This document shows positions 3,026 through 34,775 of a stretch of DNA of 35,874 nt, piece after piece (the first letter of the stretch is position 1; each line of letters begins with the position of its first letter). The notes under the pieces were generated by a model. That model was not told the DNA's origin, ran no database searches, and worked only from the letters and a program-made list of their open reading frames with translations. The DNA is from Candidatus Methanomethylophilaceae archaeon (GTDB lineage: Archaea; Thermoplasmatota; Thermoplasmata; Methanomassiliicoccales; Methanomethylophilaceae). The translations under genes were made by a program, and so were the position numbers. The DNA is taken from positions 1 through 35,874 of the forward strand of contig JAFVZY010000083.1 of the NCBI GenBank assembly GCA_017507885.1. Reading direction: 5' to 3'.

Positions 3026-6000
3026 TCATCTCCATCCCACGGTGACCTTCAATACCCACAGGTCCCCCTTCATGTCCTCGTCGAAGTTCAATCTCCCAGG
3101 GACCGTTTCGGGCATGCAGTCCAGGATCCTTGCACCGAATGTGACCTCGGGTCTCCCCACATCCCGTCCGGCGACCTCTTTGATGGAGGAGAGGTTCGTG
3201 TAGAACGTGATTCCAAGTTCAAGGTCCGGCATGATGTCGCCTCCGTTCAGGAATTCGGGAAATCCGATCGACGTACCCATGGTGAGTTCAAGGTCCACCT
3301 CGTCGTTGAACGATTCCGGAAGTATTATTCCGGACGGGTTCTCCACGTTGAACATCATCCCTTCGATCTCCCCGACGATGTATTTCAGGATGTCCTCCGG
3401 CAGTTGTGATTCGGTGCGCAACGCCAATCTGAGTCCCGCCGATGCGGTGTCCAAGGTATCTGAGAAATCCACTTCGATGAACACCGCGGCCTCCACCAAC
3501 CTTCCTGTGACCGTTTCTATGACTCCATCCACGGTGTTGCGTACCACGCATTCGAGGAAGTCGCCCAGGGAGTCCATATCGGTTATCACCCCCACCCGGT
3601 CGAACGCCTTCGTAACCGCATCCCATGCCACATCCTTCATGTCGGATGCGGATATCACCGCATCCAACATCGATCCGTTGCATTGGCCGTACGTCCCTTC
3701 GGAGAAGGACCATTCCGTGCATCCGTCGAAGTTCCTGTGCCAGGTCCTGTGGTCGTCTTCCGTGTCCTTCAAGGTGGGCGTCTTGTCCACCTTGTTTCCA
3801 TCCGGGTCCTTCAGTGTCAGGGCCTCCCCTGATTTTGTGTATTTGCCGGAGTCGTTGACGAGGACGAATTCCGGCTTCAGGACCACCATCTGACCCGGTC
3901 CTATGCTTCCGGATAGTCCCATGACCTTCTCCCTCCAGTCCGACGAGGCCGTTATCGTGTATCCGTCCAGGTCTATGGTGGATGTCGTGTTGTTGTACAG
4001 TTCCACCCATTCGTTGCCCTTGTCATCTCCTTTCGGATTGGATTCGAACTCGTTGATCATCAATCCGTTCTTCACGGGTGACGAGTACCTCAACTGGAAT
4101 CCCGCATCCACACCCATCTCCATGCCTGCGACAGGCAACGGTATGTTCGATAGGATGTCTCCCAGACCTGGTACATCGCTCAATGTCAAACCCAGTTCGT
4201 GATACTGTACCAGTTCGGGCATGATCAGGGACACGTCCGTGTCGCCCATCCTCCCGTCCAGTGTCAACAGGTGCTTCCCGCCCTTCATGAGAGGGTCCAG
4301 GGTACCTTTGACACTCCAGTCCCCCTTCACATCCTTGATGGAACCGAATCCCGTGACAATGACGTTGTCCGCTTCGGTCTCACCGCGGATCCTGATTTTG
4401 AGTCCTGCGGTGAATTCCAGGTCTCCCGTGTCGCCTGACAGCTGTGCGGTCATGAGTTCTTTGGTGTTGTCCGTCCAGGATAGCGCGTCGGTGGACACGG
4501 TCAGCGTGTATCCGAAGAACGGCATCGACACGCTCTGCCTTTCCAGACCTATCGCGATGAGGAAGTTCTCCAGGTATTCCGCAGCGAATGCGTCCGCACT
4601 CTCCACGATCCAATCCCATATCTCCTGTATGGCACCGCCCACCGTTCCAAGGAGGGTTTCCACGATTCCGGATACGAAGTTCGCAACATCAGCCATGTGT
4701 TCGTAGAGCTCGGACGTCGCTTTCTTGAACACCTCCATCACCTTCTTGAGGGGTTCCAACACGGGTTCGAGGACATCCAGCATGACCTTCCAGGCGTCTG
4801 TGAGGATGGTGTCCGACGGGCGGTACTCCACATCTTTCAACGCCCATCCGCTCACCACCGGGATGGTCAGGGTCATGTCGATGTCGATCGTCCCTTCGGA
4901 TGTGGATGATTGCGCCCTCATGGCTCCTGCCAGGGCTCCCATCCCGGTCACCGTGTATTCGACTCTGTCCCCGATGCTGGTTTCGAACACGGTGGAGTAC
5001 GCTGCCGTGCGGTCGTCCGTGAATCCGGTCTGATGGACGCATTGATCTCCCACGATGACCGGTTCCGATATGACTGGGTTTGATACGATCTCCACATCCA
5101 GGCGTTCGATGATGCGGTTCCCATCCGAATCGGACATCTCGAAGACATCCATTCCCGGAAGTGTTTCGACCACCCCATGGGAGTTCATCATGGAGAGGTC
5201 CAGCATCTCGTTGCACATGGTCTCCATGCGTTGTTCTATTATCCCGACGATGAGGGTCTGATCCAATATGAACGCCAATATCTCGGAAAGCGCTTCCCTG
5301 ATGAAGCTCCCGCCCGATTCGGGGAGTTCGGAGAGGTCCGTGAACATCTTCACGTACCTGTCCAGTTTGAGGTCGTAGTGGGTGTGGGCCGACTTCATGG
5401 CGTTGCTCGCGAGTCTGTTCGCGGTGGCAGGAGGGTATTTCTCCAGGAATGCGGCCGAGACGTTCGCATCCAGCGTCGCATAGTCCGTGAACGTGTCCCT
5501 GTTCTCCTCCATGGCCTTCAGCAGCTCCATGTAGATCGGATCGACTATCGTGGCCTCCGCCAGGGATTCGTACAGTGCGTCGGATATCACCTCCCCTCCT
5601 CCGTCCATGAGCGACCCCACTGCATCCCGGAGGGTGTCCACGAGTCTTTCCGAGTCGTAGGGGTCCACTTCGTATGCGACGGTTCCCAGTCCCAATCTGT
5701 CGCCGAGTTTCAGTCCCGCCGAGCGTACGATCTCCATGATGTAGTCCTTGATGTAATCCCCGTCGTCATAGGTCTTTTTGAAGTTCTTTATCCAATCCAG
5801 TTCGAATATGTCGATCTGCGGAAATTCCGCCGATATGTAGCTGTACACGTATTTCTGTTCGCTCGCACTCCATGTTTTCACCCCGAACGTCACGAATCCG
5901 CCGACGGGATGGCGGTAGTCCTCCTCCGCGTATCCGTTGAGTTCCATCATCGTTTTCAACAGTGGTACGGCACTGTACACGCTTTCCCCCGTGAACAGTG

Positions 6001-6979
6001 ATTTGAGGGCGTTTATGGCATCCTTGAATGGTTCCAGGACATCCTCCAGGTAATCCACGATGACGTTGCCGTAGAAGTAATCGAACCATCTGGTCGCTAT
6101 GTCGTCAAGAAGGGATTCGAGCGCCTGCGCATATACGGCGGAGACGTCGATGACCACCTTCCCGTCCGAATCCGTGGACATGAGGTCCCCGAGGTCCACC
6201 CTGTCCCTGGATGACAGTTCCCCGTCGCCGTCGCGGAAACAAATCAGTCCCATGACTTCGAGAGCGTTCTCATATGCATCGGACACATCTTGTTGTGTTA
6301 TTATCCCCGATGTCGACCTCCCTCCGTGGACGGACAATGCGCCGTACCCGTTCACCACCCTGAGCTGGGCGAGTGATGCAAGTTGATACGTCACCATCTG
6401 GGACATCGCGGTCCCCTCACCTGATACGAGGGATTCGAAAAGGGATCCCCTGGAGTCCGTCAGAGGGAGGGAGCAGCTTCCGTCCGACCTGATCTCCATA
6501 TCGTATTCCGTCACGCCCGTGACTGTGGTGGCCTTCACGGTCACCGTCCCGGTCGCCCTCAGATATACCGGGACGTGCCCGTCCGTCGCCCCCGGCAATG
6601 TGGATATCGACAGATTCTCCGTACCTAGTTCGATGTCATGGGACATCAGCTCCATGATGGTACCGTCGTCTTCCAGGGGGAATTGGAAGGACATCCAATC
6701 CGATACGCGGTCGTCGAACGTTGCGGTCTTCTCCGAGAGGCCTCCCGTGCCTCCGCTGAGGGATATGTCGCGTATGATTTCCCCCAGACCCCTGTTCACG
6801 TGATTCCTCGCGTTCGTCAGGGCGATGTCGATGGCGTCCGCATCCTTTTCGGCATTCCCCGTGTTCTCCGAGGCGTTCCCGTATTGGGTCGCCTCAGCCA
6901 TGCACATCATCGATCCCAGCAGTATCGCCACCGCGATCACCGCAAACGGCATGGCGCCCCGTTCATCGTTGCGTTTCAT
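3026..6979 (-). CDS. Large exported or membrane-anchored protein with lamin-tail-like domain
   Basis: A 1,317-residue protein of unknown function. The N-terminus (MKRNDERGAMPFAVIAVAI) is short, charged and then hydrophobic (residues about 9-29), like a pilin-type leader or signal anchor; the rest is predicted to face outward. Most of the chain is acidic, with few cysteines and alternating helical and beta-rich stretches. Around residues 970-1100 there is a lamin-tail-like (LTD) module: MINEFESNPKGDD, EWVELYNN, DLDGYTI, a GPGQMVVL turn and KDPDGNKVDKTPTL. LTD modules are known in many secreted bacterial and archaeal proteins. The opening resembles haloarchaeal DUF7286-like proteins encoded near type IV pilus genes, an unverified recollection. 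The gene is alone, with its own TATA box and terminator. It could be an adhesin, pilus accessory or cell-envelope protein. Confidence 0.8.
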   Translation of the reverse strand: MKRNDERGAMPFAVIAVAILLGSMMCMAEATQYGNASENTGNAEKDADAIDIALTNARNHVNRGLGEIIRDISLSGGTGGLSEKTATFDDRVSDWMSFQFPLEDDGTIMELMSHDIELGTENLSISTLPGATDGHVPVYLRATGTVTVKATTVTGVTEYDMEIRSDGSCSLPLTDSRGSLFESLVSGEGTAMSQMVTYQLASLAQLRVVNGYGALSVHGGRSTSGIITQQDVSDAYENALEVMGLICFRDGDGELSSRDRVDLGDLMSTDSDGKVVIDVSAVYAQALESLLDDIATRWFDYFYGNVIVDYLEDVLEPFKDAINALKSLFTGESVYSAVPLLKTMMELNGYAEEDYRHPVGGFVTFGVKTWSASEQKYVYSYISAEFPQIDIFELDWIKNFKKTYDDGDYIKDYIMEIVRSAGLKLGDRLGLGTVAYEVDPYDSERLVDTLRDAVGSLMDGGGEVISDALYESLAEATIVDPIYMELLKAMEENRDTFTDYATLDANVSAAFLEKYPPATANRLASNAMKSAHTHYDLKLDRYVKMFTDLSELPESGGSFIREALSEILAFILDQTLIVGIIEQRMETMCNEMLDLSMMNSHGVVETLPGMDVFEMSDSDGNRIIERLDVEIVSNPVISEPVIVGDQCVHQTGFTDDRTAAYSTVFETSIGDRVEYTVTGMGALAGAMRAQSSTSEGTIDIDMTLTIPVVSGWALKDVEYRPSDTILTDAWKVMLDVLEPVLEPLKKVMEVFKKATSELYEHMADVANFVSGIVETLLGTVGGAIQEIWDWIVESADAFAAEYLENFLIAIGLERQSVSMPFFGYTLTVSTDALSWTDNTKELMTAQLSGDTGDLEFTAGLKIRIRGETEADNVIVTGFGSIKDVKGDWSVKGTLDPLMKGGKHLLTLDGRMGDTDVSLIMPELVQYHELGLTLSDVPGLGDILSNIPLPVAGMEMGVDAGFQLRYSSPVKNGLMINEFESNPKGDDKGNEWVELYNNTTSTIDLDGYTITASSDWREKVMGLSGSIGPGQMVVLKPEFVLVNDSGKYTKSGEALTLKDPDGNKVDKTPTLKDTEDDHRTWHRNFDGCTEWSFSEGTYGQCNGSMLDAVISASDMKDVAWDAVTKAFDRVGVITDMDSLGDFLECVVRNTVDGVIETVTGRLVEAAVFIEVDFSDTLDTASAGLRLALRTESQLPEDILKYIVGEIEGMMFNVENPSGIILPESFNDEVDLELTMGTSIGFPEFLNGGDIMPDLELGITFYTNLSSIKEVAGRDVGRPEVTFGARILDCMPETVPGRLNFDEDMKGDLWVLKVTVGWR

Positions 6980-25454: not shown

Positions 25455-25490
25455 AGGGGAATGCGGGTTCCTCCCGCTCCCCTCTCTTTA
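25455..25490 (+). terminator. Hairpin terminator after htpG
   Basis: AGGGGA (25455-25460) plus GCGGG (25463-25467) pair with CCCGC (25473-25477) plus TCCCCT (25478-25483) around a TTCCT loop, with a 2-nt bulge, followed by CTCTTTA. The T-rich tail merges with the TATA box of the next gene. Confidence 0.6.
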
Positions 25491-25493
25491 TAC
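25486..25493 (+). promoter_or_regulatory. TATA box of the TerB-type gene A
   Basis: CTTTATAC is centred about 31 nt before ATG 25521. It excludes the upstream in-frame codon near 25461 as start. Confidence 0.5.
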
Positions 25494-25520: not shown

Positions 25521-28049
25521 ATGGCCTCCGGACATTTCGACAAGAAGGTTTACAGGGATTATCGTCCCGGGGATGATTTCCAAGACCAGATCCGCAGGTA
25601 TTCCGACGTTCGGGGCAGGATGTGCGACCCTGATCTGACCGAGTATCACAATCCCGATTACAGCGTTCTTTCGAAGTCGCAATTGGCGTATTACCTTTAT
25701 TGGCGCGACATGCTGTCCGAAGGCCGGTGTCTTCCTGGTTGCAGGGGGTTCGCATCCCTCAGGATCGCGGAGATCATCAATTCGGACATGGATCCCCTGA
25801 AGGGTCTTTCCGAATTGAGGCTCATGGCCTCCAACCCGTCCCGTCTCGGCTCCGAACTGTTCCGTGCCAGAAGGGCGATGTTCGATTACGCCATCGTGAA
25901 CGGACTCCGTTTGGACCATGGTTATTCCATCGATCCCCTGGAGATGTCCATGGTGTATTCGGAGGTCTCCGAGTACCCCGCATGCATAGACGAGTCCTAC
26001 AATCTGCCTTTGCTGATGCGTTCATGGGACGATTCCTGGAAGGGGATAGAGACGGAACGCATACGGGCGTTGTTCATCGAATCCCTGCCCCGGGTGGATG
26101 TCCACATGAAGGAGGTCCATGGCAAATCCATCCGTGACATGTTCTCGACGGGTGTCGAGACGGTACTGTATTCGGTATTCGCCTCGGAGCCGTATTTCGG
26201 GGAGAGGGATTACGAGATCTCGTTCAGCAACATGGATGCCGATGGGCTGGCCTCCTACCTCCTTGGTCTCTACAAGTGTTGTGCCAGCGTCATCGCCAAG
26301 GATGCGGGGGTCAAGGGGCCGAACATACCCTTGGTCATCACCAAGGATGTCAGGTCGCTCGTTGCGGACCTGTTCCACGGGGTTGTGGAACCCTTTGTTC
26401 CCGGGGACAGGGCGCTTGGGACCGTTCGCACCCCGTTGTCCCATAGGGAGAGGATGATGAGGGAGATGGGGAAACATCTGGGATTGTGCGATGGGAAGCC
26501 TCCTGTTCTGTATTCCTCTCCGGATTGGTTCTGTTGCGACGGTATCGAGGGGATGTTGGAGGACATGCTGTTCTATTCCGTATCCAAGGGGGATCCCTGC
26601 CCCTATGTGCCGTCAAATGCGAGGTTCATCGATTACGCCAACCTTTCCCCGGAGGGGTTGCAGTATTATCTCTATTGGAGGACCATGTTCTTCCAGGGTC
26701 GGATTCTGGACTGTGACGACGGGTACCTCACGTTGTTCCTGTCCGAGGTCATCAACTCCTCCATGCCGCGCAAGGATGTCCTGGGCATCCTTCTCAGATT
26801 GGACGGGGCGTTCGGAAACACGAAGTACGGTGAATACGTCATAGGGCGGACGTTGTTCGATTTCACGGCCGTCAATGGAATCGTGATTCCCAAAACCGTA
26901 TCGCCCATGAGGGAGGCATCCACGAACATCATGATGAGGGCCTTCTTCGAGGGAGGGGACGTTCAACCGGACGGATCGTGCTATCGTTCCATCCATGACG
27001 CCTCTCGTTCCAGGAAGGTCGTCGAATACGATGCGGATCTGGTACGGATCCTGAACAGGGTCCTCATCAGGATCTCCCAATCCGATGATCCCGATTCCCG
27101 TTCCATGTACGGCATACTGGGGTGGGAGATGGTCCCGGAATACAATTATTCCATCATGCCCTATTCGTATCTGGCGTATCTCGGAACATATCACGACGTA
27201 TCGTTCAGGATCGGGATGTCGGATTTCCATTCCGCAGGTTGGTCCGCGAATCTCGTCGATCTGGCCACGTATGTCAGAAAATACATCGATCGTCCCTCTT
27301 CTCGTTCCAGATTGAAGGCACCCCGTGTGTTCGGAGTGGATGTCGCACCACTCGTTTCTGAGGAGGTGCGCATCATGGAGGGTCTCGATGACGATGGGAG
27401 GAGGGAGAAAGCCGTCGAATCCATGAAATTGGACATGGGTGCCGTGGAATCCGCCGAACGCGATCTCATGGAGGTGTCCGAGATGATGCATGTGGATGAC
27501 GACCAATCGATTCCGGATGACGTCCCGTCGAGGGAGCAGTCGTGCGTCATCGGCGAGGGCGATGACCCGTGGGCTGTGCTGTGGGATTCCATCGGGGAGG
27601 AGGGAAGGGTATACCTTCTCGAAGCCATGGAAGGGGCACGCGCCAAACCCCCCTTGGAGAGGAGGATCAACGATGCGGCCATGCGCATCATAGGCGATGT
27701 GGTGGTTCAGGACGGGTGCGTGTTGGATGATTACATGGATCGTTTGTCGTCCCTTGAGGAGGTGCACCGATGCCCGCACCGTCGAACCTGGCCGAATTGG
27801 AAACGAACCCGTACCATGGCGGAACGGGGCAGTATTGACAATACACCTCTCCGGAGTGTCCGTACGTCCCGTCCCGCATGGTGCATCCCCAATACCATCT
27901 TCTGGACAATGCCCGCCGGAGATACTATCTCTATTGGAGGTCCTCCGTTGCCCGTGGCTCATATCCTCCGACCGATGAGGGGTACATATGGTTGCACATG
28001 CACGAGTTGTTCTTCATCGATGATGATTTCAGGGAGAATCTCGCCATAA
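25521..28049 (+). CDS. TerB_N/TerB_C-type protein A with duplicated TerB_N-like unit
   Basis: A soluble protein of 842 residues as read, with no catalytic motif. Two TerB_N-like units are present: LAYYLYWRDMLSEGR...IAEIINS (from about 55) and LQYYLYWRTMFFQGR...LSEVINS (from about 380), each preceded by a Tyr/Pro-rich lead-in. A TerB_C-like tail follows: LDMGAVESAERDLMEVSEMM, then RRINDAAMRIIGDVV and CVLDDYMDRL (to about 742). TerB-type domains are known from tellurite-, stress- and phage-resistance systems. The last 95 residues or so are out of character, overlap gene B in another frame and end in the only terminal TAA besides the broken helicase. One base shift near 27740-27755 would end the protein at TGA 27755-27757, 12 nt before gene B's likely ATG 27770. 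The 3' end is therefore suspect. Confidence 0.75.
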   Translation: MASGHFDKKVYRDYRPGDDFQDQIRRYSDVRGRMCDPDLTEYHNPDYSVLSKSQLAYYLYWRDMLSEGRCLPGCRGFASLRIAEIINSDMDPLKGLSELRLMASNPSRLGSELFRARRAMFDYAIVNGLRLDHGYSIDPLEMSMVYSEVSEYPACIDESYNLPLLMRSWDDSWKGIETERIRALFIESLPRVDVHMKEVHGKSIRDMFSTGVETVLYSVFASEPYFGERDYEISFSNMDADGLASYLLGLYKCCASVIAKDAGVKGPNIPLVITKDVRSLVADLFHGVVEPFVPGDRALGTVRTPLSHRERMMREMGKHLGLCDGKPPVLYSSPDWFCCDGIEGMLEDMLFYSVSKGDPCPYVPSNARFIDYANLSPEGLQYYLYWRTMFFQGRILDCDDGYLTLFLSEVINSSMPRKDVLGILLRLDGAFGNTKYGEYVIGRTLFDFTAVNGIVIPKTVSPMREASTNIMMRAFFEGGDVQPDGSCYRSIHDASRSRKVVEYDADLVRILNRVLIRISQSDDPDSRSMYGILGWEMVPEYNYSIMPYSYLAYLGTYHDVSFRIGMSDFHSAGWSANLVDLATYVRKYIDRPSSRSRLKAPRVFGVDVAPLVSEEVRIMEGLDDDGRREKAVESMKLDMGAVESAERDLMEVSEMMHVDDDQSIPDDVPSREQSCVIGEGDDPWAVLWDSIGEEGRVYLLEAMEGARAKPPLERRINDAAMRIIGDVVVQDGCVLDDYMDRLSSLEEVHRCPHRRTWPNWKRTRTMAERGSIDNTPLRSVRTSRPAWCIPNTIFWTMPAGDTISIGGPPLPVAHILRPMRGTYGCTCTSCSSSMMISGRISP

Positions 28050-29896
28050 TGCGTGCCGTCAGGGAACATTATGCGACCGAGGATCCCGTATTGGACGCAT
28101 TCCTCGGAGACGTCATATTGAATTACATCGTGAGGGTCGGTGAACCCGTCCCGGATCTTCCGGACCTTTCCAAGGATATGAGGGGATTCCGCATATGTCA
28201 GATACTGTCGTCACCCACGTATCGTCCGTTGTCCGTTTCCGATTTGGAATCCATGTACAGGATGAGTTCCAAAGGATGGGATTCCTCGAAGGAACACATC
28301 GCCGATGTCGTCGGCAGGATACTCTGGCGGATGGGGGACGTGAAGGCGGTCGCAGGGGAAAGACATAACGTCCTGCATGTCCTGGAAGGCCATGGCGTGG
28401 CATCCCCTGAGATCAGGTTGTTCTTCAAGGACGATCCCTCGTTCGTCATGAGGTACGGCAACGTGTTCTACAGCAGATTCCGCAACATGGTCGGACGCAT
28501 AGTCAAAGCGGTGTACCACAGGATGCACAGGCCGGAATCGAAGGCCTGTTCCCAGGCGATGGCCGATCTTCCGTTGGGTGCCTTGGAGGTGTTCGAAGAC
28601 GAATTCGCAAGGACGGGTGCATTCGATCCGTTGCCACGTGTTCCGGAACTCCAACCGTATTGCACCTCCAACAAGGGATATTGGTCCAGTTCGGGCATCA
28701 AACTCTCACCCCCTAAAAGGGATGGGCATTGGCCGTCCTACAGATTCACGATGCGCATGGAGGCGTATTCCCGTCTGCCCCTGCCTCCTGGACCGATCAT
28801 CCCCTCCACGTCCCATCATCCCTCGTATTCGCGCATGTACGTTCAGGAGATGCAGTCCTTCTACGAATGGAGGCGGGTCGTGGAATCCGGTTCCATACCG
28901 AATCTCGATTCAGGTTATGCATGGCTCATGATGTCCGAGTTGTTGAACGACTCCACACGCGACCCATCGGAGAATCTGAAACCCATGCTGGCATGCTGTC
29001 GCATCATCGAGCATGACGGATGGGGCCGTGCAAGGGATGCCATGGCAGGGTATTGTCTGGTTCACGGTCTGGTCCCGGAAGGGTTCGATTTCGATATCTC
29101 TTCCGAACCGGTATCCGCATTGATGAGGCATCTCGTGATCAACGGGCGTTTTCCGGCATTGGGTCCCGGTGGGCTGAACCGTATAACGAAGATCAATCTG
29201 TCGTCCAGGGTGTGGGATTCCGTTCTGGCGGCCCTGAATGCCCTCTACGGTGACAAAGACTTCAGGGAGTCCCTGGACGAGCCGGGGGTGTCGGTGTTCT
29301 GCACCCTGTTCGACGGGTTCCCGTGCAGCATACCCAATTGGGAAGTGATCGTTCCGATGGCCAACGGACGGGCGTACAGGAATCTCACCAACGTCTGTCG
29401 CATCGTGAAATCGCTTCTCGATGACAATGGGGGTGTTTCCAATCCGAGGGGCTTCCCCAAGGAATGGAGATGCATCATTGAAAAGGCCTTGTTCGAACAT
29501 GATGTCAAGGCCCATGTGGCATCCCTTCCGGAACTGGTGTTGGATCAGAACGAGGTATCCCGTGCCGAGATGGATCTCGAAACCGTTTCAAGGATCATGT
29601 CCACCTCCGATTCCTCCGAGACCGATTCCGACGGGGCTCCGATAGCCGTTGTCGATACACATGTTGATGTTCCTCTCCCCTTGTCACTCCCGGAAGGGGG
29701 TTGGGAATCCTTCATGTCCCGTTTGGACGATGTACAGAGGGATTATCTCCACAAGGCCTTGAATGGGACCCCCACCAAAGCACGCATCGAGAAATCGATC
29801 AACGAGATGGCTTTGGAGGAGGTCGGGGACGTGATTCTGGAGGATGGAAACGTTTTGAATGATTATTCCGACGAGATTCTGAAGAGAATCGGGTGA
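27878..29896 (+). CDS. TerB_N/TerB_C-type protein B, paralogue of A with a 5' anomaly
   Basis: 672 residues from ATG 27878. TerB_N-like units start at about 15 (RYYLYWRSSVARGSY...MHELF) and 326 (QSFYEWRRVVESGS...MSELLN). A TerB_C-like tail has AEMDLETVSRIMS and SINEMALEEVGDVILEDG, ending in NDYSDEILKRIG. Homology to protein A extends upstream of this ATG: CPYVPS (27857-27874) precedes YYLYWR with exactly the same 16-residue spacing in both proteins. In-frame ATG 27770 has GGAGG at 27758-27762, but TGA 27836-27838 interrupts that frame. The true protein may thus begin at 27770 and contain a nonsense or recoded TGA (perhaps from TGG). No start codon lies between that TGA and ATG 27878, so the start given here truncates conserved residues. 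Confidence 0.72.
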   Translation: MVHPQYHLLDNARRRYYLYWRSSVARGSYPPTDEGYIWLHMHELFFIDDDFRENLAIMRAVREHYATEDPVLDAFLGDVILNYIVRVGEPVPDLPDLSKDMRGFRICQILSSPTYRPLSVSDLESMYRMSSKGWDSSKEHIADVVGRILWRMGDVKAVAGERHNVLHVLEGHGVASPEIRLFFKDDPSFVMRYGNVFYSRFRNMVGRIVKAVYHRMHRPESKACSQAMADLPLGALEVFEDEFARTGAFDPLPRVPELQPYCTSNKGYWSSSGIKLSPPKRDGHWPSYRFTMRMEAYSRLPLPPGPIIPSTSHHPSYSRMYVQEMQSFYEWRRVVESGSIPNLDSGYAWLMMSELLNDSTRDPSENLKPMLACCRIIEHDGWGRARDAMAGYCLVHGLVPEGFDFDISSEPVSALMRHLVINGRFPALGPGGLNRITKINLSSRVWDSVLAALNALYGDKDFRESLDEPGVSVFCTLFDGFPCSIPNWEVIVPMANGRAYRNLTNVCRIVKSLLDDNGGVSNPRGFPKEWRCIIEKALFEHDVKAHVASLPELVLDQNEVSRAEMDLETVSRIMSTSDSSETDSDGAPIAVVDTHVDVPLPLSLPEGGWESFMSRLDDVQRDYLHKALNGTPTKARIEKSINEMALEEVGDVILEDGNVLNDYSDEILKRIG

Positions 29897-29917
29897 TCAC
29901 CATCATGCATTCGACAG

Positions 29918-29937
29918 GTGTCGGATGAGTCCGACAC
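29918..29937 (+). terminator. Perfect hairpin after TerB-type gene B
   Basis: GTGTCGGA (29918-29925), loop TGAG and TCCGACAC (29930-29937) form an 8-bp perfect stem 21 nt after the stop. There is no T-run behind it, so termination is uncertain; it could be an attenuator or RNA-end structure. Confidence 0.35.
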
Positions 29938-30266
29938 GCTCAAGTATATCAATTATTGTGAAGTGCCTTCACATTTTCTGTCAATAGTGTCATTTGTTGC
30001 TTTACAAGGCATCGAATTTAACGGGGGTTGGGGGGAGGGGTTCTATTTTAGGACATATTTTAAATATGTGCTCTATGATAGAAAGCGTAAGGCCCGTTTA
30101 GTTTGTCGTTGCACCCGACATTCCCTAGGGTCTGACCATTCCCAGGCTAATGCCCCACGCATTCCCGTGTCGACATTTGCGATTCTTCGGAATCCCTCTT
30201 CGATATCGGCGACATGTTCCACCACAAGAGGGGTTCTGGGGATGGACTCCTTCTTTTCCAATCATC
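29938..30266. other. AT-rich gene-free stretch between gene B and the ATPase gene
   Basis: About 330 bp with no convincing gene. The first half is clearly richer in A/T than its surroundings (for example ATATTTTAAATATGTG around 30053-30068, which contains a palindrome CATATTTTAAATATG). A short minus-strand open frame at 30073-30261 begins with TTG and has no recognisable relatives. The region may be a control region or a junction scar. Confidence 0.3.
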
Positions 30267-30273
30267 ATATAAT
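30267..30273 (+). promoter_or_regulatory. TATA box of the ATPase-helicase pair
   Basis: ATCATATAATC is centred about 27 nt before ATG 30297, which implies a leaderless or very short-leader mRNA. The ATPase and helicase genes thus have a promoter separate from TerB-type genes A and B. Confidence 0.55.
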
Positions 30274-30296
30274 CAAGTTTCAGCATACCGTCCCTC

Positions 30297-31592
30297 ATGG
30301 CCCCCGACATTCCGAAAAGAACACTCATTACGATGATGAATGCCCTCTCCTCCGGTGTCGTCCCACGCAGGGGGCTGGAATACATCGCCGTCGGAAGGAA
30401 GAAGGAGACCGAGACGTTCGTACATGATCTCGATGACACTTCCGCTGGCGGAGGGGCATTCAGATTCATATCGGGTCGTTTCGGAAACGGTAAGAGTTTC
30501 ATGACGCAGATGGTCCGTAACAAGGCCTTGGATGAGAGGTTCATGGTCATGGATGCGGATCTCGCCATAAACCGCAGACTCACGGGATCCAAGAAGGAGG
30601 GCCTCAACACCTATGTGGAACTGGTCAAGAACATGGCTGTACGTACACGTCCCGATGGGGGAGCGTTGGAATCCGTCCTTCAGGAGTGGATATACTCCAT
30701 ACAGGAACGTCTGGGGGATTCCATGGGGGTCGATCCGGATGATGTGCCTCACGATGTGGTGGAGAAGGCTTTGAAGGAGTCCGTTTCGGGCATGAGCGCT
30801 CTGCCGTTCTATCAGGATTTCCTGAAGGTCGTCATGACGTATTGGAGGGAGTACATCGCAGGGGAGGACGATATGAAATCCCTGAGATGGCTTCGCGGGG
30901 AGATGGAACTGAAAACCGATGTCCGCAAGGCGTTCGGTATAAACGCGGTGATCAACGATGCCAATTGGTACGACTTCATCAAGATCTGGGCCGAGTTCGC
31001 CGTTCGCATCGGTTACAAGGGACTCGTGGTGTTCCTGGATGAGGCCGTGGTCCTTTACAAACTCCAGTCCAAGGTGTCCAGGGTCAACAACTACGAGAGG
31101 TTGTTGACGATGTTCAACGACATCATGCAGGGGAAGTCCTCGCATCTTTCCATCTATGTCTGTGGGACCCCCGAGTTCATAGAGGATGACAATCGCGGTC
31201 TGTACAGCTACGAGGCTTTGAAATCCAGGCTGGTGCAGGGGAGATACGAGAACGGCTACGACAACTTCCTCGGACCAGTCATCAATCTCAGACCTTTGAC
31301 CAACGAGGAGATATACGTCCTGCTCAGAACGCTCAGAAACCTCCATGAGAAGAGGTACGAGTACGATTCGGGTGTGGACGACGGGATGTTGGAGACCTAC
31401 CTCCGCACCGTTCTGTCATCCGTGATGTCCACGGAGATGATCACGCCCAGGGAGATCACCAGGGATCTCATCAGTCTTCTGGACACCCTCCGTCAGAATC
31501 CCGATGCGGATTTCTCGGAGATGGTCGTGGGAAGGGTGGTCAGGGCGGACCGCAATCCCGACGACGACCTTCTCGAGGATCTGGAGATATGA
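30297..31592 (+). CDS. DUF2791/BrxD-like P-loop ATPase
   Basis: A 431-residue AAA-like ATPase of the DUF2791 family, named BrxD when found in BREX phage-defence loci. Walker A is GRFGNGKS (60-67) and Walker B is VVFLDEA (D248, E249). The segment YVCGTPEFIEDDNRGLYSYE, followed by ALKSRL, is characteristic of the family, as I recall it. Many DUF2791 genes are adjacent to an Lhr-like helicase, and here the helicase gene starts within the stop codon (ATGA overlap), so the two are translated together. It probably powers or gates DNA sensing by the helicase. No methyltransferase, PglZ or BrxC gene is in the window, so this is not a standard BREX locus. Confidence 0.85.
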   Translation: MAPDIPKRTLITMMNALSSGVVPRRGLEYIAVGRKKETETFVHDLDDTSAGGGAFRFISGRFGNGKSFMTQMVRNKALDERFMVMDADLAINRRLTGSKKEGLNTYVELVKNMAVRTRPDGGALESVLQEWIYSIQERLGDSMGVDPDDVPHDVVEKALKESVSGMSALPFYQDFLKVVMTYWREYIAGEDDMKSLRWLRGEMELKTDVRKAFGINAVINDANWYDFIKIWAEFAVRIGYKGLVVFLDEAVVLYKLQSKVSRVNNYERLLTMFNDIMQGKSSHLSIYVCGTPEFIEDDNRGLYSYEALKSRLVQGRYENGYDNFLGPVINLRPLTNEEIYVLLRTLRNLHEKRYEYDSGVDDGMLETYLRTVLSSVMSTEMITPREITRDLISLLDTLRQNPDADFSEMVVGRVVRADRNPDDDLLEDLEI

Positions 31593-33733
31593 TAGACAGA
31601 TTCAGGGAGTTGCCATGGTTCCTGAAGGAATACGTCCACGAGAATCGTTGGTCCGGGTTCCGTGATGTCCAGGTGAAGGCGTTCGACGTCCTTTTCGGAG
31701 GGGACGACCATCTGTTGATATCCTCCGGGACATCCAGCGGCAAGACCGAGGCCGCGATGTTCCCCGTGGTCTCGTCCCTGTACAACAACCATCCATGTTC
31801 GGTGGGTGCGTTGTACGTGGGGCCGTTGAAGGCACTGATCGACGATCAGTTCTCCAGATTGACCCCGATGCTCAAGGATTCCTACATAACGGTCACGGGT
31901 TGGCACGGCGATGTCTCCCGGGAGGCCCGTAACCGTCTTATCGACAATCCTTCAGGAATCCTTCAGATAACCCCCGAATCCCTTCAGAACATCATCGCCA
32001 CCCGCACGGATGATCTGGAGAGGTTGTTCGGGGATCTTCGTTTCATAATCATCGACGAGGTCCATGCGTTCATGGATTCCGATAGGGGTTCCCAATTGTT
32101 GTGTTGTCTCGGGAGATTGGAGGCCGTGGCAGGCTGTGAACCACGCAGGATAGGACTCTCGGCCACGGTGGCCGACGTCGATTCCGCCGCCGATTGGATA
32201 TCGGCCGATACCGGTCGTTCCACATCGGTGGTGAGTGACGATGCCGTTTTGGACAGGATGGTGGATATAAGGTATTTCCAGGTCCCCGTCGCGGATCCGG
32301 ATGATGATGGATTGGCCCGCAAGAAGGCTGTGAACCGTTATTACCAATCCCTGTACGGGTCGGTCCGTGGAAGGAACTGCATCGTATTCACCAACAGCAG
32401 GTCGACGGCTGAAAAGACCGCACGCTCCCTCTCCGTCATGTGCAGGGCGAAAGGCGATCCCGACAACGTCTCCGTTCATCATGGGAGCATATCCAGGGAG
32501 TATCGCATGGCGGCGGAGTCCGCGTTGAAGGACCGGTTCCACAGCAGCATCACTGTGGCTACGGTGACTTTGGAACTGGGTATAGACGTGGGCGGCTTGG
32601 ACACGGTGGTCCACGTGGGGCCTCCGGTGAGTTGTTCCAGTCTCGTTCAGAGGTTGGGTCGTACGGGGAGACGCGGCGGCCATCAGAGCATGGAGCTGTA
32701 TTGCATAGACGATGATGCCGAGGGCTGGGCGGTTCTGGATGGGGTGTCCATGAATCTGGTGAAGGCGGTGGCCATGACCACGCTGACGTTGAATGACCGT
32801 TGGACCGAACCGGCAAGGGCGGATACCATGCCGTTCGGACTCCTGTTCCATCAGACCCTGGAGTACATGAGGTCGGGGATAGGTTGCAGATTCTCATCGT
32901 TGGTATCGGATGTCCTTTCCCTGTATCCTTTCCGCAACATATCGAAGGAGGATTATGCCGTTCTGGTCAAACACATGATCTCGTCCCACGTCATTTTGAA
33001 GATGGGGGATGGGACGCTTCTTCTGGATGACGGAGGGGAAAGGATGACCTTCGATCGGGAGTTCTGTTCCGTCTTCACCGTCCGTAGGGAGATCGATGTC
33101 CGTTTCGAAGGGAAGTCCGTCGGATCGATACAGAACCTTCCCGAGAAGGACGACCTCATACAGTTGGCCGGAAGGGTGTGGGCGGTCGTCGATGTGGATC
33201 GTGACGGTCTGTTCGTGGATGTGGTGGAGTCCGACGGTTCGACCCAGACGGTTTGGAGATCATCGATGAACGGTGTGCACACGAGGGTCATGCAGAGGAT
33301 GAGGGATGTCCTGTTTTCGGACGAGGAGTATCGTTTCCTAGATTCCGCCGCACGCTCCCGTTTGAACACGGACAGGGCGTTCGCCCGTGCGGCCGGAATG
33401 GACGAGGTGTTTCACGATGCGGGGGATCGCGTGGTGGTGTATCCATGGGTAGGATCGGTGGCGTTCGACACCCTTTATAGGGTCGTATCGTCGATCCCGG
33501 AGGTTTCCCATGTGTCCCAGAGGCCGCCTTACAGGATGGATGTGTTCACACGCCTCTCCGTGGATGATCTCAGGGATGAGGTCATGCGTAGGTCCCGGAT
33601 GGATCCGGGGTGTTTCATCACCCCGGAGGATCGTCTGATCCATGGCAAATACGATGTCAATGTCCCCGAGTCCCTTCTCATGAAGGGTTTCAAGGCCGAC
33701 AGGATGGACTTCTCCTTCCGTGACCACATTTGA
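31589..33733 (+). CDS. BrxHI/Lhr-like superfamily II DEVH helicase
   Basis: A 714-residue superfamily II helicase resembling the Lhr-like BrxHI group. Motif I GTSSGKTEA is at 47-55, motif II DEVH at 156-159, motif III SATV shortly after, and motif VI QRLGRTGRRGG at about 354-364. The C-terminal 300 residues contain no second helicase core and probably bind DNA or the partner ATPase. It overlaps the DUF2791 gene by 4 nt, so the pair forms one translational unit. Its 3' end overlaps, in opposite orientation, the end of the choloylglycine hydrolase gene by 44 bp (33690-33733), so no intergenic terminator separates them. Confidence 0.88.
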   Translation: MIDRFRELPWFLKEYVHENRWSGFRDVQVKAFDVLFGGDDHLLISSGTSSGKTEAAMFPVVSSLYNNHPCSVGALYVGPLKALIDDQFSRLTPMLKDSYITVTGWHGDVSREARNRLIDNPSGILQITPESLQNIIATRTDDLERLFGDLRFIIIDEVHAFMDSDRGSQLLCCLGRLEAVAGCEPRRIGLSATVADVDSAADWISADTGRSTSVVSDDAVLDRMVDIRYFQVPVADPDDDGLARKKAVNRYYQSLYGSVRGRNCIVFTNSRSTAEKTARSLSVMCRAKGDPDNVSVHHGSISREYRMAAESALKDRFHSSITVATVTLELGIDVGGLDTVVHVGPPVSCSSLVQRLGRTGRRGGHQSMELYCIDDDAEGWAVLDGVSMNLVKAVAMTTLTLNDRWTEPARADTMPFGLLFHQTLEYMRSGIGCRFSSLVSDVLSLYPFRNISKEDYAVLVKHMISSHVILKMGDGTLLLDDGGERMTFDREFCSVFTVRREIDVRFEGKSVGSIQNLPEKDDLIQLAGRVWAVVDVDRDGLFVDVVESDGSTQTVWRSSMNGVHTRVMQRMRDVLFSDEEYRFLDSAARSRLNTDRAFARAAGMDEVFHDAGDRVVVYPWVGSVAFDTLYRVVSSIPEVSHVSQRPPYRMDVFTRLSVDDLRDEVMRRSRMDPGCFITPEDRLIHGKYDVNVPESLLMKGFKADRMDFSFRDHI

Positions 33734-34709
33734 CACAGGCGTTCAGTTCATCGAAATCCTGTCTGTCGTCCATCGGGAATGATATCGGATCATCCGAATC
33801 CAAGTCCTCCTTGTTCATATCCACTACGGATATCCTGCTGTTCCCGTATGTGGTGAAGTACATCCTTCCCCTGTCCGCGTTGATGCAGCTGGAATATTGC
33901 GTGATCTCGTACCCTTCTCCGATCCTCACGCATCCTTTTTGCTGTTCCGCGCTTTTCAGGATGTGCATGAACTGTGTGACCGAATCCTCCTCCGAATCAT
34001 TGCATATGGAGTTGGATGCCGTGAATGCGGCCTTGACGAAACGGGATTGTGACGACAGGTCGCCCGGAAGTCCCAATGCACCCATTCCGCGACTGTAGTT
34101 CCATAGATTGATCTTTTTGGAGAAGCTGTTGATCACATCCCCCGAACTCAATCCCATGTAGTTGTTCAGATTCATCATCTGGTATTCGAAGGGAGGGTTG
34201 TTGGTAAGGACGCATGTGGGATTCTCGTGGATGTTCAATCCGGAGGATACCTGTTCCACGACCAGGTCCCTTTTCTTGTCGGAGACCATCCAGTGCATGG
34301 GGGACGGGGGCAGTTGCACCGAGAACGCCTCGTTGGTTATGTTCAGGTCCTCTGCGATGGAGAGGAATTCCGATGTGTCCGAGCATTGCGTCAGGACCCA
34401 GGGGATGAATTCATGGGATGCGACATCCCCCTTCTTTCCGGATGGCGGATTGTATCTGGAGGATCCGCTGAAAAGGAGTCCTGCGATGCACAATCCATCC
34501 TCGTTCGCACCTTCGAAATACAACGGGTGTCCGTTGACGATCGCGGCCGTCCCTATGATGGCGGTATGGGAATCCGTCGCCCCGGCATGACGGAATTCGA
34601 ACGGGTGATGCCTTGGCGTGATCACGACCTGTTGTCCGTAGCCCTTGTCGTAGTCGAGGTTGCGACCGAAGTAGTGGTCCCTGTTTCTCATGGATAGTGC
34701 CAAACACAT
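33690..34709 (-). CDS. Choloylglycine hydrolase family amidase (bile salt hydrolase or penicillin V acylase type)
   Basis: A 339-residue Ntn-hydrolase. After removal of Met, Cys2 is the expected nucleophile (MCLALSMRNRDHYFGRNLDYD, with R16 and D19 nearby). Family segments TNNPPFEYQMMNLNNYMGLS and SRGMGALGLPGDLSSQSRF, which carries the catalytic-site arginine, are intact. Members deconjugate bile salts or cleave other linear amides such as penicillin V or acyl-homoserine lactones; sequence alone does not settle which. I start at ATG 34709 rather than the upstream in-frame ATG because Cys must be residue 2, and GAGGA at 34716-34720 is well spaced. No signal peptide, so it is cytosolic. It is common in gut microbes and supports a host-associated archaeon. 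Confidence 0.9.
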   Translation of the reverse strand: MCLALSMRNRDHYFGRNLDYDKGYGQQVVITPRHHPFEFRHAGATDSHTAIIGTAAIVNGHPLYFEGANEDGLCIAGLLFSGSSRYNPPSGKKGDVASHEFIPWVLTQCSDTSEFLSIAEDLNITNEAFSVQLPPSPMHWMVSDKKRDLVVEQVSSGLNIHENPTCVLTNNPPFEYQMMNLNNYMGLSSGDVINSFSKKINLWNYSRGMGALGLPGDLSSQSRFVKAAFTASNSICNDSEEDSVTQFMHILKSAEQQKGCVRIGEGYEITQYSSCINADRGRMYFTTYGNSRISVVDMNKEDLDSDDPISFPMDDRQDFDELNACVKCGHGRRSPSCRP

Positions 34710-34746
34710 TGGGATTCCTCGAAAGATATGATTCCCTCTGCATTCG

Positions 34747-34775
34747 GATAAAGTATCCGTGAACATGATTCACGG
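34747..34775 (-). promoter_or_regulatory. TATA box with adjacent inverted repeat upstream of the choloylglycine hydrolase gene
   Basis: The minus strand reads ATACTTTATCC (TATA at 34747-34753), about 41 nt before ATG 34709, giving a leader of about 15 nt that includes the GAGGA site. Immediately upstream lies a perfect inverted repeat CCGTGAA-CATGA-TTCACGG (34757-34775). Its place next to the TATA/BRE region makes it a candidate operator. Confidence 0.45.

What the first reader, a model, noticed from the sequence alone, without database searches (positions are those of the whole stretch)
25521..33733. Candidate archaeal defence module: two TerB_N/TerB_C paralogues with a BrxD-like ATPase and a BrxHI-like helicase
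Seen: two adjacent large proteins with YYLYWR-type TerB_N units and TerB_C tails, followed by a P-loop ATPase (GRFGNGKS, FLDEA) and an SF2 helicase (DEVH, GRTGRRGG) overlapping by 4 nt. Known: DUF2791 ATPases and Lhr-like helicases pair in BREX-type loci as BrxD and BrxHI, and TerB-domain proteins occur in Ter-linked stress and anti-phage systems. Inferred: the four genes act together, with TerB-type proteins as sensor or effector scaffold and ATPase-helicase as DNA engine. No nuclease, methylase or PglZ gene is present. The duplicated TerB-type subunit in an archaeon is, to my knowledge, not described.
Basis: partly seen in the sequence, partly recalled or inferred. Interest (0 to 1): 0.78.

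Follow-up and report, generated by a model that had tools for sequence, protein, structure and literature searches.

The report
Archaeal Shango system with duplicated subunit
The four genes are a known anti-virus system called Shango, sitting in a gut methane-producing archaeon; what is unusual is that its fast-changing first component (SngA) has been multiplied in this archaeal family, as if one motor could be fitted with several different sensors.

Summary
The locus is Shango (SngABC), a published anti-phage system. PADLOC SngB and SngC profiles match the ATPase (4e-148) and helicase (2e-187) far better than BrxD and BrxHI, and both TerB_N proteins match SngA. The real novelty is in SngA. 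Each copy here is a canonical SngA preceded by an extra, internally duplicated TerB_N module. Two adjacent copies occur in 6 of 36 Methanomethylophilaceae loci, against 0 of 54 bacterial loci. A sister-genus genome has three SngA genes joined to SngBC through a 55-nt contig overlap, plus a separate array of four. A and B are old paralogues: A-type and B-type clades each have 100% support, and related loci keep only A, only B, or both. The locus is near-core in the genus (31 of 31 genomes searched), sits among housekeeping genes, and follows the htpG tree. Caveat: B carries an in-frame TGA at a conserved Trp codon (27836), and A lacks its usual stop. Best mechanism (inferred): SngA is the exchangeable recognition/adaptor subunit for a common SngBC ATPase-helicase motor. 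Verdict: new variant of a known kind.

The parts
25487..25492 (+). TATA-like box (TTTATA) 29-34 nt before the ATG of SngA-A
   Evidence: read directly from the sequence; function inferred, not tested
25521..28049 (+). SngA-A (first TerB_N protein); SngA-homologous part ends about 27764, remainder is an open frame overlapping B
   Evidence: (PADLOC SngA 1.2e-20)
25599..26396 (+). TerB_N module 1 of A (extra module relative to bacterial SngA)
   Evidence: hhalign N-half vs C-half, probability 100, E 1.7e-45
26574..27380 (+). TerB_N module 2 of A (aligns to canonical SngA)
27564..27761 (+). TerB_C-like tail of A
   Evidence: hhalign to bacterial SngA
27770..27838 (+). probable original N-terminal codons of SngA-B (ATG 27770) ending in an in-frame TGA at a position that is Trp in six orthologues
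27839..29896 (+). SngA-B (second TerB_N protein), open from 27839; first in-frame ATG 27878
   Evidence: (PADLOC SngA 6.1e-23)
29897..30296 (+). 400-nt AT-richer spacer between SngA-B and SngB, single copy in the genome; TATAAT at 30268-30273 before the SngB start
   Evidence: promoter role inferred
30297..31592 (+). SngB, BrxC/D-type P-loop ATPase (GRFGNGKS, VVFLDEA)
   Evidence: PADLOC SngB 4.3e-148 vs BrxD 3.7e-49; Pfam PF10923
31589..33733 (+). SngC, SF2 Lhr-like helicase (SGTSSGKT, DEVH, QRLGRTGRRGG)
   Evidence: PADLOC SngC 2.4e-187 vs BrxHI 6.6e-113; Shango helicases of the family score about 600 bits or more, other (Lhr-type) helicases of the phylum at most 331

Best explanation
A Shango (SngABC) locus in a Methanomethylophilaceae archaeon, in a family-specific variant with two ancient SngA paralogues. 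SngB (BrxC/D-type ATPase) and SngC (Lhr-type SF2 helicase/translocase) form a conserved motor. SngA is an all-helical, nuclease-free adaptor made of one or two TerB_N modules plus a TerB_C tail. I infer that the TerB_C-containing half common to all SngA docks on the motor, that the divergent TerB_N modules recognise features of invading DNA or its replication complexes, and that recognition lets SngBC strip or block the invader's DNA rather than cut it. Different SngA copies would serve alternatively with the same SngBC, widening or changing the range. Shown: identity (about 0.95 on its own), anatomy, paralogue history, selection. Inferred: every biochemical step (about 0.35).
For: Identity: profile matches, with SngB and SngC far ahead of the BREX families, and canonical SngA-SngB-SngC order in Paenibacillus and Methylibium. 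SngA anatomy: C-terminal half equals canonical SngA (probability 100, E 6e-41); internal TerB_N duplication (E 1.7e-45); AF2 model of A at mean pLDDT 86.3, nearly all helix, no PDB fold match at E <= 0.001; bacterial model likewise. Alternative rather than obligate partners: A-type clade 100% and B-type clade 100% support; nine genomes carry only A-type, four only B-type, three both, beside SngB genes 60-100% identical in pairwise comparison. Copy number varies 1, 2, 3 in operon plus orphans and a 4-gene array. All 41 genomes with a TerB_N match also have SngB. SngA evolves fastest: at SngB 70-75% identity, SngC is 55% and SngA 24%; dN/dS of SngA is 0.05-0.21, up to about three times that of SngB.
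Against: No experiment on Shango mechanism was found in the library ('unknown' in the 2026 review PMC12926258). SngA is under purifying, not positive, selection, weaker than expected for a classic arms-race sensor. The genus-wide presence (31 of 31), vertical inheritance and housekeeping neighbours are unusual for a defence system and would also fit a domesticated genome-maintenance role. In this window B has a TGA at a conserved Trp codon, so B may be disabled here, or the MAG consensus may be wrong.
Confidence: 0.45

Rival explanations
1. SngA-A and SngA-B are subfunctionalised subunits of one obligate heteromeric complex, so the window needs both.
For: The pair is conserved in order in three genomes of the genus (window, G080, G092) and separately in three genomes of a sister genus. 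Paralogues within a locus share only 18-21% identity.
Against: Close relatives keep only A-type or only B-type SngA next to the same SngBC. B carries an in-frame TGA in this genome.
Confidence: 0.2
2. The system has been domesticated in this genus into a core DNA-maintenance or replication-stress machine and is no longer primarily anti-viral.
For: Present in all 31 genus genomes searched although many are incomplete MAGs. SngB tree mirrors HtpG (Mantel rho 0.73). Located among topoisomerase VI, UvrD-type helicase, htpG and thrS genes, and downstream of htpG in many relatives.
Against: Fast SngA divergence, orphan copies and tandem arrays, truncated or interrupted SngA genes in several genomes, and absence from most other Methanomethylophilaceae genera and the rest of the phylum sample fit accessory defence better than essential maintenance.
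Confidence: 0.2
3. The extra SngA copies are mostly decaying duplicates without a role, and only one SngA works.
For: Nonsense or frame breaks occur in several SngA genes: window B TGA, G089 TGA at another conserved Trp, broken G101 SngA, TAG-interrupted orphans in G081 and G082. Every SngB frame in the same survey is free of stops.
Against: B-type and A-type copies remain open over about 2 kb across genomes only 26-30% identical. Single-copy SngA dN/dS is well below 1.
Confidence: 0.15

Closest known systems
Shango (SngABC; TerB-like protein, ATPase, DEAD/DEAH helicase; Millman 2022 as cited in, and Johnson 2023, PMC10250203)
   Same: All three families, gene order SngA-SngB-SngC on one strand, start-stop overlap of SngB and SngC.
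   Different: Two SngA genes; each SngA has an extra N-terminal TerB_N module; archaeal; near-core and vertically inherited in its genus.
BREX (BrxD ATPase, BrxHI helicase)
   Same: SngB and SngC are distant relatives of BrxD and BrxHI.
   Different: Much weaker scores (BrxD 166 vs SngB 492 bits; BrxHI 376 vs SngC 623 bits); SngB fails the NCBIfam BrxD cut-off (165 vs 350); no PglZ, methylase or BrxC-type partner among the annotated neighbours.
Type I restriction-modification specificity subunits (HsdS), as a working analogy only
   Same: Fast-changing, multiplied and orphan copies of one subunit around a conserved motor.
   Different: No homology; the analogy is from general knowledge and not tested.

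Membership tests
Shango (SngABC) | SngA: TerB_N / TerB_C protein | tested here: met
   PADLOC SngA 1.2e-20 (A) and 6.1e-23 (B); profile-profile match to bacterial SngA E 6e-41. Pfam TerB_C alone does not reach threshold on A or B.
Shango (SngABC) | SngB: BrxC/D-type ATPase closer to SngB than to BrxD | tested here: met
   492 vs 166 bits
Shango (SngABC) | SngC: SF2 helicase closer to SngC than to BrxHI or cellular Lhr | tested here: met
   623 vs 376 bits; other phylum helicases at most 331 bits
Shango (SngABC) | Contiguous co-directional A-B-C cluster | tested here: met
   extra SngA and a 400-nt spacer before SngB are deviations
Shango (SngABC) | Anti-phage activity | not testable with these tools
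   shown for P. aeruginosa PA14 Shango (PMC10250203), not, as far as found here, for any archaeal member
BREX | BrxD at equivalog cut-off | tested here: not met
   NCBIfam NF033438 165.4 vs cut-off 350
BREX | PglZ phosphatase and methylase/BrxC in the locus | tested here: not met
   neighbouring ORFs scanned against Pfam are TopoVI, UvrD-type helicase, CBAH and metabolic or core genes; not every small ORF was scanned
Ter stress-response (TerY-P etc.) systems | TerD/TerC/TerY partners | not tested
   none of the scanned neighbours is a Ter protein; no dedicated search

The most novel reading that the evidence does not exclude
In Methanomethylophilaceae, SngA has become a family of interchangeable recognition subunits (in operons of one, two or three genes, tandem arrays and orphans) that plug into one conserved SngBC motor, a protein-based multi-specificity immune system analogous to exchangeable HsdS subunits.
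Probability: 0.3. Interest if true: 0.7.

Novelty: new variant of a known kind. Interest (0 to 1): 0.45.

Why it matters
Shango's mechanism is listed as unknown (PMC12926258). A lineage where the TerB subunit is multiplied, internally duplicated and reciprocally lost, while ATPase and helicase stay single and conserved, gives a natural experiment on which subunit carries specificity. It also shows that a defence system thought of as a mobile bacterial accessory can be an almost fixed, vertically inherited part of a gut methanogen genus.

Tried and rejected
BREX membership: rejected on profile scores.

Swapping of SngA between near-identical SngBC loci: first suspected from L170/L163 (SngB 91%, SngA 37%). 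Rejected as proof of swapping, because the L163 distal copy is the true orthologue (65%) and the proximal copy is an extra paralogue.

Positive selection on SngA: not supported; dN/dS is 0.05-0.21.

A -1 frameshift fusion of A and B: rejected, because the A frame past 27770 has no homology while the B frame does from 27839.

UGA read as Trp: considered because two genomes have TGA at conserved Trp codons. No evidence beyond these two cases; mutation or MAG error is preferred.

Solved structures: no sequence match for SngB or bacterial SngA and no fold match for either SngA model; the weak winged-helix hits (probability 0.3-0.47, CysB/YhaJ-type) are treated as noise.

Phages collection: no SngB homologue.

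Spacer 29897-30296: no second copy in the genome.

SngC profile at E 1e-60 across the phylum: saturated by other helicases, so SngB was used for distribution.

Full report
1. Observation. The window is one contig (C56) of a 1.64-Mb MAG. Its relatives in named collections are Candidatus Methanomethylophilaceae / Thermoplasmata MAGs, several from ruminant guts. TerB_N is above the Pfam gathering score in both A and B, with two stretches each. The ATPase is PF10923 (BrxC_BrxD) and the helicase DEAD + Helicase_C. This is far beyond chance.

2. Identity. PADLOC assigns A and B to SngA, the ATPase to SngB (492 bits; BrxD 166) and the helicase to SngC (623 bits; BrxHI 376). SngABC is the Shango system. 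In P. aeruginosa PA14 Shango is a TerB-like protein, an ATPase and a DEAD/DEAH helicase, and it restricts several phages (PMC10250203). Annotated plasmid copies in Paenibacillus and Methylibium show the plain order TerB_N protein, ATPase, helicase. So the system is known, and archaeal occurrence has been reported (Asgard archaea, PMC11291487).

3. Anatomy of SngA. A profile of 47 archaeal SngA proteins aligns over its C-terminal half, from the second YYLYWR-type motif to the end, with bacterial SngA (probability 100, E 6e-41). The N-terminal half is a second copy of the same module of about 260 aa (probability 100, E 1.7e-45). In genus g12 and in G074 the SngA is short (about 410-430 aa in the SngA match), with a single TerB_N stretch in the one tested (L057). 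AF2 models (mean pLDDT 86.3 for window A, 78.5 for a Paenibacillus SngA) are nearly all helix, and neither matches any PDB fold at E <= 0.001. No nuclease is detected in any of the four proteins.

4. Copy number. Among 54 bacterial loci with at least 4.5 kb upstream of SngB, 53 have one SngA and none has two. Among 36 comparable Methanomethylophilaceae loci, six have two adjacent SngA genes (window, G080, G092, G037, G041, G096; Fisher p 0.003, ignoring relatedness). In G042 the end of contig C269, which carries three consecutive SngA genes, overlaps the start of C289 (end of the third SngA, then SngB, SngC) by exactly 55 nt, as adjacent assembly-graph contigs would. I infer a SngAx3-SngB-SngC operon. 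The same genome has a separate array of four SngA genes. Further SngA genes lie away from SngBC in several genomes, including this one (C14). All 41 genomes of the order with a TerB_N match also have SngB.

5. History. Window A groups with the first SngA of G080, G092 and G085 (UFBoot 90) and with the only SngA of nine single-copy loci (UFBoot 100). Window B groups with the second SngA of G080 and G092, with the only SngA at the SngBC locus of G090, G084 and G091, and with the one found in G093 (UFBoot 100) (same). The SngB tree splits these genomes in the way HtpG does (Mantel rho 0.73, p 0.001). The simplest reading is an old two-SngA locus followed by loss of one or the other copy. A second conserved pair occurs in genus g7 (G037, G041, G046). 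SngB was found in all 31 genus genomes and in 11 more of the family, but in no other family of the order (147 genomes), nor outside the family in 390 sampled phylum genomes.

6. Evolutionary rates. At 70-75% SngB identity, median SngC identity is 55%, SngA 24% and HtpG 74%. Pairwise dN/dS is 0.05-0.21 for SngA orthologues, against 0.00-0.12 for SngB and 0.04-0.07 for HtpG. SngA therefore changes fastest, but under purifying selection.

7. Condition of the window's copies. The B frame is homologous from 27839, directly after TGA 27836-27838. In six orthologues this is Trp (YWRYGGxECxYVPS-type). ATG 27770 sits upstream of it and the first ATG after it is 27878. A's frame runs past the normal end of SngA to 28049. 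Either B is interrupted in this organism or the MAG consensus is wrong here. G089 has an independent TGA at another conserved Trp codon of its SngA. I have not been able to decide between mutation and error. SngB and SngC are intact here.

8. Mechanism. Best explanation: SngBC is the motor, and SngA is an adaptor whose canonical half docks and whose TerB_N modules recognise. Several SngA genes would widen or shift recognition. The reciprocal A-only and B-only loci argue that either type can work alone with the same kind of motor. No step of this is biochemically shown; the literature lists the mechanism as unknown (PMC12926258). Rivals are an obligate A/B heteromer, domestication to genome maintenance, and decaying duplicates.

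9. Novelty. Shango itself, and archaeal Shango, are known. The multi-SngA, module-duplicated, vertically inherited variant with orphan SngA arrays was not found in the held library, which lacks most subscription papers, so absence is weak evidence. Rated as a new variant of a known kind, interest 0.45.

Noticed in passing
33690-34766 (-): Choloylglycine hydrolase family gene (Pfam CBAH 3.7e-84) with third-position GC 0.48 (read on the + strand frame) against about 0.68-0.80 in the neighbouring genes, and lower overall GC (0.525), suggesting possible recent acquisition of a bile-salt-hydrolase-like enzyme; its 3' end overlaps the helicase gene by 44 nt.
   Followed up: partly
L059, L060, L061, L064, L065 (genomes G090, G092, G080, G084, G091): A second, two-gene unit in genomes that also have Shango: a short SngA-like protein (365-451 aa, match limited mainly to the TerB_C end) directly followed by a SngB-like ATPase (41-44% to SngB), with no SngC helicase beside it.
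   Followed up: partly
L007 4916-8179 (-) (own genome, contig C14): Orphan SngA-like protein of about 1088 aa with two TerB_N motifs, a long basic low-complexity linker and a TerB_C-like end, away from SngBC.
   Followed up: partly
L171 and L166 (G082, G081): Orphan SngA genes interrupted by in-frame TAG; in an order known to use TAG for pyrrolysine it is open whether these are pseudogenes.
   Followed up: no
plasmids collection: 691 plasmids, 449 of them from Klebsiella and most of the 691 predicted conjugative, carry a SngB-like ATPase; whether these are Shango or another ATPase system was not checked.
   Followed up: no
3026-6979 (-): 1317-aa ORF whose only Pfam match is a Lamin Tail Domain (4.9e-14); probably a large surface or secreted protein.
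   Followed up: no
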